From the NCBI RefSeq assembly GCF_007752345.1, contig NZ_CP036299.1:310001-374000 (forward strand): a stretch of 64,000 bases of DNA. Direction: 5' to 3'. Source of the stretch: Planctopirus ephydatiae (lineage in GTDB: Bacteria > Planctomycetota > Planctomycetia > Planctomycetales > Planctomycetaceae). The notes under the pieces are model-generated. The model saw only the letters and a list, made by a program, of their open reading frames with translations. It searched no databases and was not told the origin of the DNA. Each line of letters opens with the position of its first letter. Positions within the stretch are counted from its first letter, which is position 1. Positions 14,401 to 40,946 of this stretch are shown piece after piece. Position numbers and translations under genes: made by a program.

Positions 14401-16362
14401 TTACTCAGATTCGACTTCGCCGAACTGCCATTCTTTGACGAGATTGCCATCGATGAGTTCGGCCCGGATCCAGCCGAGAGAGAGGTCGCTGTCTCCTTTG
14501 CCGAACTCGATGCGGATCCCTGTGAGCAGGTCTTGAACTGGCAAGGTGATCTCGTGAGTTTCCCATTCACCTTTCTGAGTGACCGCAAACTTGACCTGCC
14601 GGTTTTGCGTAAAGCTTGGCTCGCTGGCAGTTGACCACATGACACGCCCTTCCATGCGGGACGAAGTCTTAAGTGGCAGGCGCAGGCGCAGTTGGCGATT
14701 CACATGCGGTACGTCGTACGTTTCGAAGAGAATGGGTCGATCTCCGGAACGCTTGAGAACCAGCTCGCCATCTTCGACTTCGGCATCGGCACCAGTCGCC
14801 CAGCCTTGTTGCGGTCTTTCAAAGTTCGGATTTTTCTGCGGAACCAATGCGCTGGTTTCTTTGAGAAAGTTCTGAATGAGGTTCGTCATGCGTACGATTT
14901 CATCCCGGCGTGAGCGTGCGAGGTTAATGCGCTCGCCGGGATCATTCTGCAGGTCGTAGACTTCAATGCGGTCTGTCTGGGTGACATGACCACCGAAGAA
15001 GCGAATCAGCTTCATATTTTCACTGCGAACAGAGATCGCAGGTGTGGTCCCTGTCGTGGGGTTGTAGTGCGGGTAGTGATGAAAAATGGCCCCGCGATCA
15101 AAACCTGCGGCCCCTGTGAGTGCGGGTTTCAGAGTGACGCCATCAATCTGATGACCTGCGGGGATGGTGCCGTGCGCCATATCGACCAGGGTCGGGAGGA
15201 GATCCACAGCACTGACGACGTCGTCGCAGGTGCGAGCAGGAGTGGCGACGCCGGGCCAGACGATGATGAGGGGGACGCGACTGCCCCCTTCATACATCGA
15301 GCCTTTGCCACCACGGAGCGGTCGATTGCTGGTGAGGAGGTCGCCTTCGATCGTGTTGGTCATGTTGCCACCGTTATCGGAGGTGAAAACGATGATGGTG
15401 CTCTGCGTGAGCTGGAGTCGCTCCAGTGCGGCGACAATGAGGCCGACGCGCTGGTCGAGTGCCGCGATCATGGCGGCCATGACCGGGGCATGTTGTGGAT
15501 CTTGAGAGGGGTCTGCCGATGTGCGTGCCGGCGGAATATCCCCAGATGGAGCTTGAAAAGGTGCACCGACCGATTGATACCACAGATTCAGAAAGAAGGG
15601 TTCCTTGGAATTGGTTTCCATCCAGTTGATGGCCTGTTGTGTCAGCAGATCATCAGTGTGTTGACCGGCGAGTTGCGGCTGACTGGTGAGCGGCGAACTG
15701 CGGACGAAGTGGGAAAAGCCCTGATTTTCTGGCTGAGAAGTGTTTTCGCCCAGGTTCCATTCGCCCATGAAAGCGGTGGCATAGCCTGCGGTTTGAAGAA
15801 TCTCTGCCGCTGTGAGTTCATCGCCAGGGAGTTGAGTGCGTGATGTCGGGGTGACCATCGAGATATGGGAAAGGGCGGTCTGTGGCAGGGAGGGTTCGAG
15901 AATTTCGCCCGGGTTGAGTTCGCGCGATTGAGTGAGCTTCAGACGTGCGGGCCATTTGCCAGTGAGGAAGCTGGCCTGGCTGGGTTCATCGAGCGAACTG
16001 CTCGAGTAGGCTTGAGTGAAGATGACGCCGCGAGCGGCGAGGGCATCGATTTGAGGAGTGCGGGAAGATTTGCTGCCGTAGATGGAGGTGTCTCGCCAGC
16101 CGAGGTCATCGACCATGATGACGATTATATTGGGGCGGTCGGCGAGGGCTGCCGAGGTGGTGTCAGCACTCGTTTCCGGAGTGATTTGTGCGAGTACGAC
16201 AGGTGTCGGGCTGGTTGTGAGGATCCAGATCAGGCTGGCAAAGAGCAGGCAAAGCCCCGAGACAATGCGAGTGAGGCGACGCTGATTCAAGTACGCTTGG
16301 CGATCCGGCAACATCGAGCGCCCGCTTCTATCCGATGATCGGTGGTTTTCTGTGGTGGTCAT
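14401..16362 (-). CDS. Sulfatase-family protein with a degenerate active site (probable pseudoenzyme)
   Basis: 653 residues. A membrane or signal segment lies at about residues 31-58 (VSGLCLLFASLIWILTT). The alkaline-phosphatase-like sulfatase fold is clear: RPNIIVIMVDDLGWRDT holds the metal Asp pair, FTSDNGGN the second metal site, and GGKGSMYEGGSRVPLI the usual late block. The catalytic residues are changed, however. The formylglycine signature C-x-P-S-R reads D125-E-P-S-Q129, GKWHLG reads GEWNLG, and the His of the xxHxP block reads SVGAPFQAP. The nucleophile and its helpers are therefore missing while the metal ligands remain. About 140 C-terminal residues form an added beta-sandwich-like domain. 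It may bind rather than hydrolyse sulfated glycans. ATG at residue 17 is an alternative start. Confidence 0.85.
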   Translation of the reverse strand: MTTTENHRSSDRSGRSMLPDRQAYLNQRRLTRIVSGLCLLFASLIWILTTSPTPVVLAQITPETSADTTSAALADRPNIIVIMVDDLGWRDTSIYGSKSSRTPQIDALAARGVIFTQAYSSSSLDEPSQASFLTGKWPARLKLTQSRELNPGEILEPSLPQTALSHISMVTPTSRTQLPGDELTAAEILQTAGYATAFMGEWNLGENTSQPENQGFSHFVRSSPLTSQPQLAGQHTDDLLTQQAINWMETNSKEPFFLNLWYQSVGAPFQAPSGDIPPARTSADPSQDPQHAPVMAAMIAALDQRVGLIVAALERLQLTQSTIIVFTSDNGGNMTNTIEGDLLTSNRPLRGGKGSMYEGGSRVPLIIVWPGVATPARTCDDVVSAVDLLPTLVDMAHGTIPAGHQIDGVTLKPALTGAAGFDRGAIFHHYPHYNPTTGTTPAISVRSENMKLIRFFGGHVTQTDRIEVYDLQNDPGERINLARSRRDEIVRMTNLIQNFLKETSALVPQKNPNFERPQQGWATGADAEVEDGELVLKRSGDRPILFETYDVPHVNRQLRLRLPLKTSSRMEGRVMWSTASEPSFTQNRQVKFAVTQKGEWETHEITLPVQDLLTGIRIEFGKGDSDLSLGWIRAELIDGNLVKEWQFGEVESE

Positions 16363-17042
16363 GCTGAGGCCGAAATGCAGGTCTGCGGGCTGGCGAGCCG
16401 CTGGAAACCTGATTCGAAGCTGACATCAGTTCGTCTCAAACCGGAAATGATTTGTGGAAGCTTGTCATCGGGCGCGAGGACAGCTGATTTCACAAATCAA
16501 GGAGTTTATTGTCATACTGGACTTTCAGTCAGTGCTCAAGTGAAAGATCGACTGAAGTCCGATGGAGCTTTGGGATTTACTGATGGTGATCGAGAAAGCC
16601 ATTCTAAACTCGGTGAAAGTCTAGGGAGGAAGGGGATCACGAAAGACAGATGGACGGACTCGCTGTCGTGAGAAATTCAGATCCTTTGAAAACGGGAGAA
16701 CGTAAAGAAAAGACCCCTAGATCGACCAAAGCCCCGGATCTGCTTATGTGACGCAAACACCCAAATCTAATGATCTGTGATCTCATGGGTGGCTGACGCT
16801 TGCGGCGGAAAAGTTTACCCATTATCCCTAAGTCCATGTATCATGGAGGTGTCGAAGCGACATTCGGCAATTTTTGCCATCAATCGACGGTGTGTCGCCG
16901 ATAGATTGAGAAATGTCAGCAACGGGCCTTGTTGATGTTCGACTGAGCGAGCCTTTCGTGTGGAAAGGTCTGATGAGGGCTGGAACCTGTTCTCTTGCCT
17001 TCGCCAAAGCGCGTCAGGGACATCACTGGGAGAAGGAGTGAA
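16363..17042. other. Intergenic region, no supported gene
   Basis: 680 bp between divergent genes. Small open frames (for example 16637-16837 minus) lack family features. The last bases contain the AGGAG ribosome-binding site of the Cys-rich gene. No repeat or strong hairpin was seen. Confidence 0.5.
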
Positions 17043-17543
17043 ATGATGGGTCGTTTTATCCGCAATGTGGCTACACTGGCAGTCGTCACTGCACTGGGAA
17101 TTTCTGCTTCTGGAGTTGTCGAAGCGAAGCAACCTGGGGCTGTCTATGGTGGCCCTTCGTTCGGCCAGATTCCGCCAGTTCCTGGTCAGGAGCCCACTGC
17201 TCTGCAGCCTATGGCTGATCCGGCTTATGACAGCATGACCACGACCGTGGTTTCGCCAGGTGCGGCTTATGTTTCCACACCCTCCTGTGTGCTCTATGAG
17301 TGTGTGAACTACCGCAGAGAGCGGAACATTGCACCTTGTGCTGTTTCCAAGATTGTGTCGATCAAGGATCCCTGCAATCCCTGTCAGTGCGTCTGTGTGA
17401 AGATCTGTGTGCCACCTTGTGCCTGCGAAGAAGAAGTCAAGGTGAGTCGTTGTGGTGACAAGGTCGTTTATGATTATGGTAAGTACTCAGTCGAACTGAC
17501 CTCGTCATCACGTCGTGGGATTACGGTCACTTATCACGACTAA
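17043..17543 (+). CDS. Small exported Cys-rich protein, unknown function
   Basis: 166 residues from ATG 17043, which has AGGAG 5 nt upstream; an ATG directly follows, so 17046 is equally possible. A typical signal peptide (MMGRFIRNVATLAVVTALG, cleavage after VVEA) leads to a Pro/Gly-rich segment and then a cysteine-dense core with 14 cysteines, including PCNPCQCVCVKICVPPCACEEE. The spacing suggests disulfide bonding or metal binding in the periplasm or outside the cell. The last 35 residues (VVYDYGKYSVELTSSSRRGITVTYHD) look like a beta hairpin. I do not recognise a characterised family. The gene stands alone, with a probable terminator 200 bp downstream. Confidence 0.8.
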   Translation: MMGRFIRNVATLAVVTALGISASGVVEAKQPGAVYGGPSFGQIPPVPGQEPTALQPMADPAYDSMTTTVVSPGAAYVSTPSCVLYECVNYRRERNIAPCAVSKIVSIKDPCNPCQCVCVKICVPPCACEEEVKVSRCGDKVVYDYGKYSVELTSSSRRGITVTYHD

Positions 17544-35825: not shown

Positions 35826-36791
35826 ATGGGGGCAGCGCGCCTTCCTCGACTACTCAGGCTGATTCAGGCACTGCAATCGGGCAGACTGTGCAATTCTGTC
35901 CAATTGGCAGAGGAGTGCGGTGTCAGCCGCCGGACGATCTTCCGGGATATCAGCATCCTGCAGGAAGCGGGCATTCATGTTCTCTACGACGAAGAGCGGC
36001 AAGGTTATTGCATGCCTCTTCGGTTGTCGTTACCTGCCAGTCAGCTCAGTTTAAGTGAGGCGATCTCGCTGCTGCTGTTTTGCAGTGAACTTTCCGATTC
36101 AACCACGGGTATCCCTTTTCAGCAGGATGCCCGGCAAGCGGCCATGAAGATTCTCGAAGGCTTGCCGCGGAGTGTGCGGGAGACAGTGGCTGAGATTACC
36201 GAATCGATGTCGATCCGTATCGATTCGCGAAATCAGTTGATTGGCAGCCAGTCACTGTACGAAGTGCTCCTCTCGGCACTGATCCGTCGGGAGCAGATCC
36301 GCGTGCGGTATCACAGCCTCACGGAAGCATCGCCTCTATCGACGTTGCTGAGCCCTTATCGACTCCTTTTCAGTCGGAGGAGCTGGTATGTGATTGGGCG
36401 ATCAAGCTGGCATCGCACCGTGCGGACATTCAATGTCGGCAGGCTGGAGCAGCTGGAACTGGCGGGGACTTTCTACAAGATTCCACCGCGATTCAGCCTC
36501 GATCGTTATCTGGGAAATGCCTGGCATCTCATTCGAGGAACACCGACAGGCCAGACGGTCAAAGTGCAATTCGATAAGCAGGTGGCCATGAATGTGGCCG
36601 AAGTGCGCTGGCATAAAACACAGTCGGCGGAGTGGCTCGAAGATGGGTCAGTGGTCTTGAGCTTTAAAGTGGATGGCCTGAGCGAAATCGTCTGGTGGAT
36701 TCTCGGCTATGGCCGCTATGCCCGGGTGCTGGAACCCGTGACACTCAAGGCCATGATTCATGAGCATGCACAGCAGATGCTGGCGACGTGA
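35826..36791 (+). CDS. WYL-domain transcriptional regulator (YafY-like)
   Basis: 321 residues. An N-terminal winged helix-turn-helix of the HTH_11 type (RLIQALQSGRLCNSVQLAEECGVSRRTIFRDISILQEAG) is followed by a linker and a WYL domain with the strand SWYVIGRSSWHRTVRTFNVGRLEQLEL, then the C-terminal WCX extension (VQFDKQVA; WILGYGRYARVLEP). Such regulators bind single-stranded DNA or small ligands and control DNA repair, defence or metabolism genes. No target can be named, and no defence genes adjoin. It is convergent with the Nudix gene, 6 bp away. Confidence 0.9.
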   Translation: MGAARLPRLLRLIQALQSGRLCNSVQLAEECGVSRRTIFRDISILQEAGIHVLYDEERQGYCMPLRLSLPASQLSLSEAISLLLFCSELSDSTTGIPFQQDARQAAMKILEGLPRSVRETVAEITESMSIRIDSRNQLIGSQSLYEVLLSALIRREQIRVRYHSLTEASPLSTLLSPYRLLFSRRSWYVIGRSSWHRTVRTFNVGRLEQLELAGTFYKIPPRFSLDRYLGNAWHLIRGTPTGQTVKVQFDKQVAMNVAEVRWHKTQSAEWLEDGSVVLSFKVDGLSEIVWWILGYGRYARVLEPVTLKAMIHEHAQQMLAT

Positions 36792-36797
36792 CGAGTA

Positions 36798-37292
36798 TCA
36801 ATCATCGATTGATGACGATTCAAGATGAGGTTCTTCATTATCGATGACGTTCTTGATCAGCAGTTCAATGATTTTTGTGTTGGCCGAAGGGAATTTGAGC
36901 TGGGCAAGTTCTGCGATGGGCACCCAGTGAAAAGCACCCGCCAGAGAAGATGTGAGTAAGGAAGATTCTCTTAAGTCGGCCGAGGGGCTCACAGGTTGGC
37001 ACAGCCAGAACTCGATCCGAAAAATCTCTTCAATACCATCATCCCCGACTCGAGTGCTCTGCCACGCATCAAGCAGGCGTTCAGCAGTCACCGCCAGACC
37101 TGTCTCTTCAAGGCACTCGCGACAGGCCGCCGCAGCGAAGTCTTCTCCAGACTCAACTTTTCCGCCCGGAAACTCAGCCAGCCCCGCGAACGATTGACCC
37201 GGTTGTCGCTGACCCACAATCACATGGCCCCAGGCAATCACCAGTGCAACGCCGATTTTTTTAAATCGCGGTTCTTGTAGTGAGGGGTTCAT
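36798..37292 (-). CDS. Nudix hydrolase (MutT-like)
   Basis: 164 residues from ATG 37292; a TTG one codon earlier is also in frame. CAGGGATGAGA lies upstream as a plausible ribosome-binding site. The Nudix box GGKVESGEDFAAAACRECLEETGL is complete (G-x5-E-x7-RE-x2-EE-x-GL), so it should cleave a nucleoside diphosphate linked to some group X. The opening KKIGVALVIAWGHVIVGQR and FAGLAEFPGGK resemble MutT/8-oxo-dGTP pyrophosphohydrolases, which sanitise the nucleotide pool, but substrate cannot be fixed from the sequence. The acidic C-terminal tail (NEEPHLESSSIDD) is unusual. Confidence 0.92.
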   Translation of the reverse strand: MNPSLQEPRFKKIGVALVIAWGHVIVGQRQPGQSFAGLAEFPGGKVESGEDFAAAACRECLEETGLAVTAERLLDAWQSTRVGDDGIEEIFRIEFWLCQPVSPSADLRESSLLTSSLAGAFHWVPIAELAQLKFPSANTKIIELLIKNVIDNEEPHLESSSIDD

Positions 37293-37393
37293 CAATGTCT
37301 CATCCCTGGCTGGTCAATCCACAAAAAGTGTGGTCAGTCCGTTGGTCAGATTCTTTTGTCCCGCTCATCTCAAGCATGAGAAGATGGAACAAA

Positions 37394-37423
37394 GGGTGCC
37401 CGCCATCAATACAGCAGGCACCC
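37394..37423 (-). terminator. Probable terminator of fabI
   Basis: GGGTGCC (37394-37400) and GGCACCC (37417-37423) form the stem, extended by GC pairs. On the minus strand the hairpin is followed by TTTGTT. It lies 30 bp past the fabI stop codon. Confidence 0.6.
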
Positions 37424-37452
37424 CATGTTGAAAATCTGGCTCAACAAAATGT

Positions 37453-38277
37453 CTAGCTGGATGATTTCGCAGGGAAGGCGTCCAGAGGTGGGGCACCCAT
37501 CACATGATAGCCCGAATCGACGTGCAGCGTTTCGCCCGTCACACCGGTCGAGAGATCACTGAGCAGGTAAACAGCCGATTTGCCCACGTCTTCGGCTGTG
37601 ACGTTCTGCCGCATGGGCGACATCGTGTCGTACATCGCCAGCATGAGGTCGATCCCCTTGACGGCTGATGAACTCAATGTGCGAATCGGCCCGGCACTGA
37701 TGGCGTTGACGCGAATCTTGCGCTGGCCCAGTTCAGCGGCCAGATATTCCACAGCCGATTCCAGAGCTGACTTGCACAGGCCCATGATGTTGTAGCCGGG
37801 GATCACCTTTTCACCACCCAGATAGGTGAGGGTGATGATACTGCCACCATCATTCATGATTTTCTGAGCGCGATGCACAACGGCCAGCAGGCTGTAGACG
37901 CTGATATCCATCGACACCTTGAAGCCTTCACGGCTGCACGCGTGGACATCCCCTTTGAGATCGTCAATCGGGGCATAGGCAATCGAATGCACGACAAAAT
38001 CGATATTCCCCAGCCCTTCATGAATGGCAGCAAAGGCTTTGTCGAGGTCTTCGTCTTTTTGAACGTCGCAGGGAATGATGTGCTTGGCACCCAGGGGCTC
38101 GACCAGTTTGCGAACCCGGCGTTCCATTTTGGGGCTGGCAGGATCTTTGTCGGGCAGGAAGGTGAAAGCCAGTTCGGCACCTTCAGCGTGGAGCTTCTCA
38201 GTGATCCCCCAGGCAATCGAATAATCATTCACCAGCCCGAGAATTACCCCTTTTTTGCCCGTGAGCAAACCCATCAT
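37453..38277 (-). CDS. fabI: Enoyl-ACP reductase (NADH)
   Basis: 274 residues, normal FabI length. It reduces trans-2-enoyl-ACP in the last step of each fatty-acid elongation cycle and is the triclosan target. The N-terminal nucleotide-binding stretch [19 protein letters not shown], catalytic tyrosine and lysine in [13 protein letters not shown], the first tyrosine in ISVYSLL, and [13 protein letters not shown] and [19 protein letters not shown] match the FabI family. ATGATG begins the gene with AAAGGA 5-7 nt upstream. It stands alone, with its own terminator, unlinked to the ketoacyl synthase at 19.7 kb. Confidence 0.95.
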
Positions 38278-38711
38278 CGCATCCTTTGGACAGAAGATTT
38301 AAACAGTGACATTCCGTGAATCTTGCGGCCACAGCCATCCGCCTCGAAGGCTAAGTCGCTATCGCCCGTCACCTTTTCAATCCTTACCTTATCGGCCGCC
38401 GGAAAATCGGGCAACTACCAGTCCATTTCATCTCTCGCGAACCGCAGCCCGGCAAACTCTGTTTCTCCGGAAAAGTTTGACGGTCAATCTCACAATCAAC
38501 TGAGTGACCGCCGATCAAATCTGCCCATAAAGTCTTCCAGGCTTCACTGATCGGATGGTGATTCGGTTGAAGTTCACACGCCGGACGACATTCTCCCAGC
38601 ATGTGAACAGGACTGGGGTAAATTACCAATCAGGATGGAGCCATGCCTTGCGGCACGGTGTGTGGGTAGCTGTGCAGTACCAAACCGCGCAGTGCCAAAC
38701 CACGGCATCGA
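38278..38711. other. Intergenic region, nothing firm
   Basis: 430 bp between divergent genes. A GCCATGCCTTGCGGCACGG segment near 38641 may be a decayed REP-like element. Small frames are not supported as genes. Confidence 0.4.
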
Positions 38712-40946
38712 TTGAATCTGGTTGATGTGAGGACACCCGTGTTTTGTCTGAGATTTTGCAAACACCGGCCCGCTGACTGGTGGCGAAAGCTCGCTTCAAA
38801 GCCCGGCTCGCCAGTCGAGAATCGTCCGGTGTTGGTAATTAACACCGCCATCGCGAATCGTGTCGCACTCCCTTTAGCCATCTGGCTGGGTGTGATGATC
38901 GTCCCCGGATTGGCCCAGAACTCACTGCTCGGGCTATTCACCGGCGAGGGGACATCTCAACCCCCAGTGTCGACAGCTTTCGGGCCACTGAATGACCCGG
39001 CCCAGCCCAGAGCCGGGACACAGTTTGCTCAATTGCCGCCAGGTCAGGTTACACCAGTTCCTGCTCAGCCAGTTCCTGCAGCAGGGGTGTTTGTGAATCC
39101 ACCGCAGGCCATCCAGCCATTCGATCCCGTGAAGGCCCGTTCAACCGCCGTCGCGCTCAACTACAGCAGAGCCTCGCTGCATCGCATCCGCAAGAATCCT
39201 TCCGTGCGGGTGACACACGAAGAGCAGACGAAGATTCTCAACCATCTCGACTTCAACGGCGTGGCCGACGAAGAAGTGGTCAAGCTGTATTCGTCGATTC
39301 TCGATGAAGTGGGTCAGCAGCGTCTGGCCGATCAGGAACGAACTGTACTGACAGATAAATATCAGGGGGCGATTGCTCAAAGTGTGACTCTCAGTGCGTT
39401 CACTGTGGCCGCCCAATTAGCGACTGCCAGCTATCCCGAAGCGATTCGCACGGGAGCAGCCAGTTGGTGGGATTACCGCACGACGACACTGAATCGTGAT
39501 CTCGATTTGTGGCGCGTCGAAAAAGCCCGGCTGCAGGCCATCAATCAGAAGTCGATTCAGTTTCTCGAAACCAGTTGGCGCCTCGCTCGCACACGGCAGA
39601 TTCCCGATACCTGGCTCGTTCGCAGCGACGATCTCGATCAACTCGAACTGGCATGGGCTGAACCCGATCTGGAAACCCGATTGCGGCGGCTCAAACGCAC
39701 AGAACCCTTCATGGAAGCCTGGCCACCGTACCATTACTACGTGGCGCGAACAGAGCAGGGGTTGGGCCGCCTCGCTGAGGCCAATGAAACCTACGAAAAG
39801 CTCGCCAAACTGCAGCAGGGGCATTTCCGTAAAGATGAGATGCTGGCCGCATCATTGGCCAATCAGTCGGCCATACAAACCGTGCTGGGCCTGCCCGAAG
39901 CTCCCACAACCGCTCGCAAAGCACTCGCCGCTTCGAATGAATCGTGGGAGTCGCACCTCCTCGCAGCAGCCGTCCTGCAGCGAGCCGGTGAGTTCGACGT
40001 CGCCGAAGAAGCGATTCTCAGAAATCTCGACAGCAAAGCCTTCGTATTGCCAAGTCAGGTCGCTTTGCTGTCGCTGTACTGCTCGAGTGGAGCGACTGAA
40101 AAGCTGCAGGCTAGATTGGCAGATGCCACGCTCCTCAAGCAGGTTCCTGTCCCGGTGCTTGTCGCGTGCAGTTCAGTGCTCGCCGATCAGACGCCCCCTG
40201 GATTGCGGCGGCAACTCATGGCGTCGATTCAAGGCATGCCCAAGCTCAACTTTGGAGCTGACGATTACGTGATCGCTGCTCAGCCCAACTGGAATCTCGA
40301 AGGTGCGAAGATCTCCCTCGAAGTGAACGGCCAGCGTTACGGTAAGCCGCAGGTCGCCATGCAACAGGGGTACGTAACAGCCAGCTTTGGTGGAGTGGCC
40401 GAATGGGGACATCCCCTTTCCGGAACAACCGAACGTTTGAACCGAGCGACGATTGTGCTGGAATATCCCCAGTTGCCACCCATCCGGCTGGCTCTCGATC
40501 CTCAAACGGCGGCTGAAAATGCGATTGTCGCACAGCGCGGCCCGCGCTGGCAGTTGACTCATATCGGGGCCGATGACTCCCTCGTGACGAAGTTCGCACC
40601 TCGCACCGAATCGATGCTCGCCAGACGACGAGGCAATCCCGTGCAACTTGGTGCCCCAGCCGGAGAAGAGTCGATCGCCAACGTGCAGCCGGCGATTGAG
40701 ATTGTGGACATCATCGAGGATCGCTCGCGCGGGCCCATCAATCCCTTCGAGGATGACCCCGCACCAGCAGTGACGGACGATGCCGCCGGACTGGCTGCCT
40801 CGGGACAACGGATTGGCTCGCAGCCGGTCTCTCAATCACAGGCTGTCTCACAATCACAGTCTGTCTCTCAGACAGTCACCAAGCCGCCAATCATCCGCAA
40901 GCTGCCCGACTGGCCACATACGCCGGCCAAGACCAGTACGCCGTAG
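38712..40946 (+). CDS. Large exported protein, unknown function, helical/TPR-like
   Basis: The open frame begins at TTG 38712 (744 residues), but the true start is uncertain. A GTG at 38829 would put the hydrophobic segment (IANRVALPLAIWLGVMIVPGLAQ) at the N-terminus as a signal peptide, which I consider likely. The mature protein has a Pro/Gln-rich linker, then a long helical part with TPR-like periodicity (YVARTEQGLGRLAEANETYEKLAKLQQ; LAAAVLQRAGEFDVAEEAIL), and a beta-rich C-terminal region. Near the end a Ser/Gln repeat (SQPVSQSQAVSQSQSVSQ) is encoded by tandem repeats of about 18 bp at 40828-40872. No known enzyme domain was recognised. It is convergent with the small lipoprotein gene, 7 bp away. 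Confidence 0.75.
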   Translation: MNLVDVRTPVFCLRFCKHRPADWWRKLASKPGSPVENRPVLVINTAIANRVALPLAIWLGVMIVPGLAQNSLLGLFTGEGTSQPPVSTAFGPLNDPAQPRAGTQFAQLPPGQVTPVPAQPVPAAGVFVNPPQAIQPFDPVKARSTAVALNYSRASLHRIRKNPSVRVTHEEQTKILNHLDFNGVADEEVVKLYSSILDEVGQQRLADQERTVLTDKYQGAIAQSVTLSAFTVAAQLATASYPEAIRTGAASWWDYRTTTLNRDLDLWRVEKARLQAINQKSIQFLETSWRLARTRQIPDTWLVRSDDLDQLELAWAEPDLETRLRRLKRTEPFMEAWPPYHYYVARTEQGLGRLAEANETYEKLAKLQQGHFRKDEMLAASLANQSAIQTVLGLPEAPTTARKALAASNESWESHLLAAAVLQRAGEFDVAEEAILRNLDSKAFVLPSQVALLSLYCSSGATEKLQARLADATLLKQVPVPVLVACSSVLADQTPPGLRRQLMASIQGMPKLNFGADDYVIAAQPNWNLEGAKISLEVNGQRYGKPQVAMQQGYVTASFGGVAEWGHPLSGTTERLNRATIVLEYPQLPPIRLALDPQTAAENAIVAQRGPRWQLTHIGADDSLVTKFAPRTESMLARRRGNPVQLGAPAGEESIANVQPAIEIVDIIEDRSRGPINPFEDDPAPAVTDDAAGLAASGQRIGSQPVSQSQAVSQSQSVSQTVTKPPIIRKLPDWPHTPAKTSTP

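What the first reader, a model, noticed from the sequence alone, without database searches (positions are those of the whole stretch)
14401..16362. Sulfatase homologue in which every main catalytic position is replaced
Seen: the formylglycine signature C-x-P-S-R reads D-E-P-S-Q (residues 125-129), GKWHLG reads GEWNLG, and the His-containing xxHxP block reads SVGAPFQAP. The metal ligands (VDD, SDN) and the late GGKG-YEGG block are intact. Established: type I sulfatases need Cys or Ser for formylglycine, plus the Arg, Lys and His helpers. Inference: loss of the helpers together, with fold and metal site kept and an extra C-terminal beta domain, suggests a selected pseudoenzyme, perhaps a sulfated-glycan receptor, rather than a decaying gene.
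Basis: partly seen in the sequence, partly recalled or inferred. Interest (0 to 1): 0.72.

Follow-up and report, generated by a model that had tools for sequence, protein, structure and literature searches.

The report
Retired sulfatase kept as secreted protein
In three closely related freshwater planctomycetes a secreted sulfate-removing enzyme has lost its cutting residues and part of its substrate pocket, yet selection still preserves the protein, so it has very probably been turned into a non-enzymatic, binding-type protein.

Summary
In detail: 14401-16362 (-) encodes an S1_16-type sulfatase whose nucleophile Cys, Lys and two His are replaced (D125, E201, N203, G266), while the metal ligands and Lys353 are intact. 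One correction: the Arg-to-Gln change is unique to this genome; two sister species keep Arg.

The same D/E/N/G set occurs in three of the four genomes of the genus. The fourth carries an orthologue (58% identity) with a fully intact site, beside the same neighbour gene. The loss is therefore recent, single and within the genus. It is not decay: after the loss the three copies evolve at dN/dS 0.16-0.21, like neighbouring genes, with no stops or indels in the mature protein (0 of 2,000 neutral simulations).

Two further findings change the interpretation. The substrate-pocket loop is 15 residues shorter and the former sulfate pocket now carries acidic residues, so a sulfate receptor using that pocket is unlikely. 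On the branch of loss only the sulfatase domain sped up; the C-terminal beta domain stayed unusually conserved. Intact relatives also have that domain; it is a mobile accessory module.

Best reading: a selected pseudosulfatase acting as a secreted, metal-stabilised scaffold for the C-terminal binding domain. Ligand and activity are untested.

The parts
14401..16362 (-). Whole ORF, pseudosulfatase, 653 aa (probable true start Met17 at 16314)
16186..16269 (-). Hydrophobic N-terminal segment (residues 32-59), probable signal peptide or membrane anchor
   Evidence: read from sequence; inference
14818..16140 (-). S1_16-type sulfatase domain, residues 75-515
   Evidence: Pfam; AlphaFold model pLDDT 89; best match 9fo1 Z 53.6
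16105..16110 (-). Metal ligands D85, D86 (kept)
15976..15990 (-). Formylglycine motif replaced: D125 E126 P127 S128 Q129 (Q only here; R in two sister species)
15748..15765 (-). GKWHLG replaced by GEWNLG (residues 200-205)
15667..15684 (-). Position of the shortened substrate-pocket loop (residues 227-232; the segment is 24 aa against 39 aa in the intact orthologue)
15565..15567 (-). Sulfate-binding His replaced by G266
15373..15378 (-). Metal ligands D329, N330 (kept)
15304..15306 (-). K353, a cationic sulfate-site residue kept in all three species
14404..14817 (-). C-terminal beta-sandwich accessory domain, residues 516-653
   Evidence: secondary structure; shared with intact relatives; constraint
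16995..17543 (+). Divergent neighbour, small secreted Cys-rich protein; marker that the intact copy in G074 is the positional orthologue

Best explanation
The gene encodes a secreted pseudosulfatase. Shown: its ancestor was an S1_16-type sulfatase, still intact as the orthologue in G074. On the branch leading to three species of the genus, the nucleophile Cys, Lys and both His, plus part of a pocket loop, were lost; the sulfatase domain evolved fast and then came back under purifying selection, while the C-terminal beta domain stayed constrained throughout. Inferred: the protein no longer cleaves sulfate esters; the sulfatase domain survives as a metal-stabilised scaffold; the working part is the C-terminal accessory domain, which binds a surface or extracellular polymer (glycan most likely) or a partner protein.
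For: Same D/E/N/G replacements in three genomes, intact site in the syntenic orthologue. The pseudo clade is one origin, support 100/100, stem 0.78 against 0.22 for G074; for the neighbouring gene the same comparison is 0.19 against 0.25. dN/dS after the loss 0.16-0.21, inside the range of neighbours; C-terminal domain 0.03-0.12. Neutral simulation 0 of 2,000. Four of six non-metal catalytic columns changed clade-wide against 4 of 70 other conserved columns, Fisher p 7e-4. Domain contrast: C-terminal identity to G074 is 62% against 57% for the sulfatase domain, whereas in 253 intact pairs the C-terminal domain is never the better conserved; mean identity to outgroups is lower than G074's by 0.091 for the sulfatase domain and by 0.005 for the C-terminal domain. 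The C-terminal domain also occurs on other sulfatases, a WbsX-like protein and a DUF1553 protein.
Against: No activity or binding data. Only three genomes carry the pseudo form and they are 94-95% identical, so conservation of D, E, N and G has been tested over a short time. The C-terminal domain has no Pfam hit, and its PDB sequence matches are weak (best E 0.042), so 'glycan-binding' is inference. The sulfatase domain is itself still constrained (dN/dS about 0.19), so it is not mere ballast.
Confidence: 0.5

Rival explanations
1. Sulfated-glycan receptor: the dead active site still captures sulfated sugars without cleaving them.
For: Fold, metal site and K353 kept; single-residue dead sulfatases (C-to-S) bind substrate in crystals such as 6psm.
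Against: Four sulfate-site residues are now D, E, N and G, which removes positive charge and adds acidic groups; the substrate loop is 15 residues shorter.
Confidence: 0.12
2. Pocket repurposed: D125, E201 and the metal ligands form an acidic site that binds extra metal or a cationic ligand, or catalyses a different hydrolysis.
For: D125, E126, E201 and N203 are identical in all three species and the sulfatase domain remains constrained, dN/dS about 0.19.
Confidence: 0.18
3. Prozyme or partner: the pseudosulfatase pairs with an active sulfatase of the same genome and tunes it.
For: More than 40 other sulfatase-fold genes in the genome; pseudoenzymes commonly regulate active paralogues (own knowledge).
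Against: No sulfatase lies next to it, and the nearest paralogues are only 36-40% identical.
Confidence: 0.1
4. Slow local decay of a gene that is no longer needed.
For: Intact orthologue in the fourth genome; further loss of Arg129 in this genome only; accelerated stem.
Against: dN/dS 0.16-0.21 as in neighbours, no stops or indels in the mature protein in three genomes, 0 of 2,000 neutral simulations.
Confidence: 0.06
5. Still a working sulfatase with unusual residues.
For: Metal site and fold kept.
Against: Asp cannot be converted to formylglycine (own knowledge); Cys or Ser is found at this position in 161 of 162 homologues, the other being masked.
Confidence: 0.02

Closest known systems
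AMOR_S1_16A kappa-carrageenan 4S-sulfatase, SulfAtlas S1_16 (PDB 9FO1, PMC11760155)
   Same: Fold (Z 53.6, 434 residues aligned, 40% identity); Ca ligands D18/D19/D263/N264 and K287 all matched
   Different: C58, K123, H125, H201 replaced; pocket loop shortened; W79 not conserved; extra C-terminal domain absent from 9FO1
Syntenic orthologue in G074 (L034)
   Same: 58% identity, same domain order, same neighbour gene, identical last 14 residues
   Different: Complete catalytic site C-S-P-T-R, K, H, H and full-length pocket loop
YejM/PbgA/LapC, periplasmic sulfatase-like domain in Gram-negative bacteria (PMC7018646, PMC7576196)
   Same: Sulfatase fold lacking the typical sulfatase site and used for a non-sulfatase role
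   Different: Membrane protein with its own 5-helix domain and a Thr302 with reported Mg-dependent phosphatase activity; NCBIfam score here 26 bits against a cut-off of 825
Planctomycete and Lentisphaerae S1 sequences suspected inactive (PMC5066984)
   Same: Same phylum in part; suspected inactive because a catalytic residue is lost
   Different: Those lack only one positively charged residue (Ile or Leu instead); here nucleophile, Lys and both His are replaced and selection was tested

Membership tests
SulfAtlas S1_16 sulfatase (active enzyme) | S1 sulfatase fold, closest to S1_16 structures | tested here: met
   Top structural and sequence matches are S1_16 entries
SulfAtlas S1_16 sulfatase (active enzyme) | Metal site Asp-Asp...Asp-Asn | tested here: met
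   D85, D86, D329, N330
SulfAtlas S1_16 sulfatase (active enzyme) | Cys/Ser-x-Pro/Ala-x-Arg formylglycine motif | tested here: not met
   D-E-P-S-Q here, D-E-P-S-R in two sister species
SulfAtlas S1_16 sulfatase (active enzyme) | Sulfate-site Lys, His, His | tested here: not met
   E201, N203, G266 in all three species
SulfAtlas S1_16 sulfatase (active enzyme) | Sulfate release | not testable with these tools
   needs purified protein
Selected pseudoenzyme | Homologous to enzymes, catalytic residues lost | tested here: met
Selected pseudoenzyme | Maintained by purifying selection after the loss | tested here: met
   dN/dS 0.16-0.21, neutral simulation 0 of 2,000; three genomes only
Selected pseudoenzyme | No catalytic activity, another function | not testable with these tools
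   needs assays
YejM/PbgA/LapC | NCBIfam NF038282 above its cut-off | tested here: not met
   26.3 bits against 825
Carbohydrate-binding module (C-terminal domain) | Match to a known CBM family | tested here: inconclusive
   No Pfam hit; weak PDB matches, best E 0.042 to a GH10 chain
Carbohydrate-binding module (C-terminal domain) | Mobile module found on several unrelated secreted enzymes | tested here: met
   On sulfatases, a WbsX-like protein, a DUF1553 protein and others

The most novel reading that the evidence does not exclude
The former sulfate pocket was not just switched off but converted: the fixed Asp125, Glu126, Glu201 and Asn203 next to the retained metal site form a new acidic pocket that binds a cationic ligand or extra metal, or catalyses a non-sulfatase reaction, so a sulfatase changed chemistry within one bacterial genus while an intact orthologue survives in a sister species.
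Probability: 0.18. Interest if true: 0.75.

Novelty: new variant of a known kind. Interest (0 to 1): 0.5.

Why it matters
Planctomycetes carry dozens of sulfatases and almost all are annotated as enzymes by fold alone. This case shows a dated, single-origin conversion of an S1_16 sulfatase into a selected non-sulfatase, with an intact orthologue in the same genus for direct comparison. It makes the question 'what does a sulfatase scaffold do after catalysis is lost' testable, and it points to a mobile, unnamed C-terminal domain as the likely binding part.

Tried and rejected
Decay: rejected by dN/dS, lack of stops and indels, and neutral simulation. Loss of formylglycine-generating enzyme as the cause: rejected, FGE-domain genes are present and other sulfatases keep Cys. 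Selection on antisense ORFs inside the gene: not supported, the longest one differs in length between the three genomes (285, 195 and 170 aa). Control sulfatase L003 for a rate comparison with G074: unusable, no clear orthologue among several paralogues. Relatives in viral contigs: none. The fold search did not test the C-terminal domain by itself, because the sulfatase domain filled the list and no further structure jobs were allowed; absence of a named fold there is not evidence. No paper in the library uses the word pseudosulfatase.

Full report
WHAT IS THERE. The ORF at 14401-16362 on the minus strand encodes 653 residues. It matches Pfam Sulfatase over residues 77-396 and SGSH_C over 353-490. 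Its closest solved relative is 9FO1, an S1_16 kappa-carrageenan sulfatase. An AlphaFold model of residues 60-653 from 60 related sequences has mean pLDDT 89.0 and pTM 0.86; its best match is again 9FO1, Z 53.6 over 434 residues. The window lies in a single-contig 5.21 Mb genome with 47 Pfam sulfatase hits. The genus has four held genomes. One relative is titled 'Planctomyces sp.' from a pond (L061), and the 5,423,075-base contig of G033 matches what I remember of Planctopirus limnophila; the genus name Planctopirus is therefore from memory, not from a tool.

THE SUBSTITUTIONS. Relative to the intact family the window protein has Asp125 for the nucleophile Cys, Glu126, Gln129 for Arg, Glu201 for Lys, Asn203 for His and Gly266 for His. 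Asp85, Asp86, Asp329, Asn330 and Lys353 are kept. In 162 distinct homologues with all sites aligned, Cys or Ser occurs at 125 in 161 (one masked), Arg at 129 in 162, Lys at 201 in 161 (one masked), His at 266 in 162, and His at 203 in 145. G033 (95% identity) and G095 (94%) share D, E, E, N and G but keep Arg129, so the Arg loss is private to this genome (codon CAG against CGG).

ORTHOLOGUE AND DATE OF THE LOSS. The fourth genome, G074, has a 58% identical protein with the full C-S-P-T-R, GKWHL and His set. It sits beside the orthologue of the same small secreted protein that flanks the window gene, so it is the positional orthologue. In a tree of 60 sequences the three pseudo copies are one clade (100/100) and G074 is their sister (100/99); the pseudo stem is 0.78 changes per site against 0.22 for G074. 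For the neighbouring secreted protein the same comparison is 0.19 against 0.25, so the acceleration is specific to this gene.

SELECTION AFTER THE LOSS. Pairwise dN/dS among the three pseudo copies is 0.158, 0.206 and 0.171, within the 0.00-0.31 range of eight neighbouring genes and close to the esterase and methyltransferase next to it. In neutral simulations with the observed number of changes and transition bias, none of 2,000 runs for any pair had as few nonsynonymous changes as observed, and three to four stop codons were expected where none is seen. The only disruption is a TGA at codon 12 in G033, upstream of a conserved ATG at codon 17, which makes Met17 (16314) the likely start. Of 76 columns conserved at 90% or more in 56 intact homologues, the pseudo clade departs at 11, against one for G074. 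Clade-wide departures hit four of six non-metal catalytic columns and four of 70 others, Fisher p 7e-4 (the six columns were chosen from 9FO1 and from general knowledge of the family).

THE POCKET. In 9FO1 the sugar pocket is lined by residues including His149, and Lys287 and His201 contact the sulfate (PMC11760155). In the pseudo clade the segment that carries the His149 loop is 24 residues long, against 39 in G074 and 38-41 in the near relatives inspected. The sulfate subsite is described as invariant in S1 enzymes (PMC10154612). Here it has lost two His and one Lys and gained Asp and Glu. A receptor that holds sulfate in this pocket is therefore unlikely (inference from charge and loop loss, not measured).

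THE C-TERMINAL DOMAIN. Residues 516-653 are mostly beta strands in the model. The domain has no Pfam match and only weak PDB sequence matches. It is not an acquisition of the pseudoenzyme: G074 and most near relatives have it. A search of 30 genomes found it also on other sulfatases, on a DUF1553 protein, on a WbsX-like protein and at the N-terminus of a protein with a weak strictosidine-synthase-like match, so it is a mobile accessory module. In all 253 pairs of intact relatives the domain is less conserved than the sulfatase domain; in 128 pairs of similar sulfatase identity (50-66%) it averages 25% (maximum 48%). Between the window protein and G074 it is 62%, above the sulfatase domain's 57%. 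Compared with G074, mean identity of the window protein to outgroups is lower by 0.091 for the sulfatase domain (all 23 outgroups) but by 0.005 for the C-terminal domain (14 of 23). Pairs are not independent, so these counts are descriptive. After the loss dN/dS is 0.03-0.12 for this domain and about 0.19 for the sulfatase domain.

MECHANISM. Shown: single-origin loss of the catalytic set, shortened pocket loop, kept metal ligands, renewed purifying selection, and steady constraint on the C-terminal domain. Inferred: no sulfatase activity; the fold acts as a metal-stabilised scaffold; the C-terminal domain does the binding, most likely to an extracellular polymer. The N-terminal hydrophobic segment suggests export. 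The gene stands alone between a methyltransferase-like gene and a small secreted protein gene, so context gives no substrate.

COMPARISON AND NOVELTY. It is an S1_16 homologue by fold but fails two defining features of the enzyme (nucleophile motif; Lys/His/His), so I do not file it as a sulfatase. It works like, but is not a member of, YejM/PbgA, another sulfatase-fold protein without the usual sulfatase residues (PMC7018646, PMC7576196). Possibly inactive S1 sequences in planctomycetes have been mentioned before on the basis of one residue (PMC5066984). A pseudosulfatase with the whole catalytic set replaced, dated by an intact sister and tested for selection, was not found in the searched papers. 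I rate it a new variant of a known kind.

Noticed in passing
window 16995-17543 (+): Small secreted Cys-rich protein (PCNPCQCVCVKICVPPC core), no Pfam match, conserved across the genus and found in 17 of 30 genomes searched; function unknown.
   Followed up: partly
G000:C1 about 2673032-2673868 (L152) and 2934546-2935532 (L148): Two other sulfatase-like genes of the genome keep Cys but read unusual residues at the Lys/His positions in a profile alignment; may be further degenerate sulfatases or misalignments.
   Followed up: no
window about 36000-40000: GC skew changes sign from about +0.15 to about -0.10 (cumulative maximum near 36 kb), as at a replication origin or terminus.
   Followed up: no
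L188-L211 (C-terminal domain hits): The unnamed beta domain is a mobile module on sulfatases, DUF1553, WbsX-like and other large planctomycete proteins; no Pfam family describes it.
   Followed up: partly
window 15976-15978: Arg129 to Gln is private to this genome, so change at the old active site appears to have gone on after the shared loss.
   Followed up: yes
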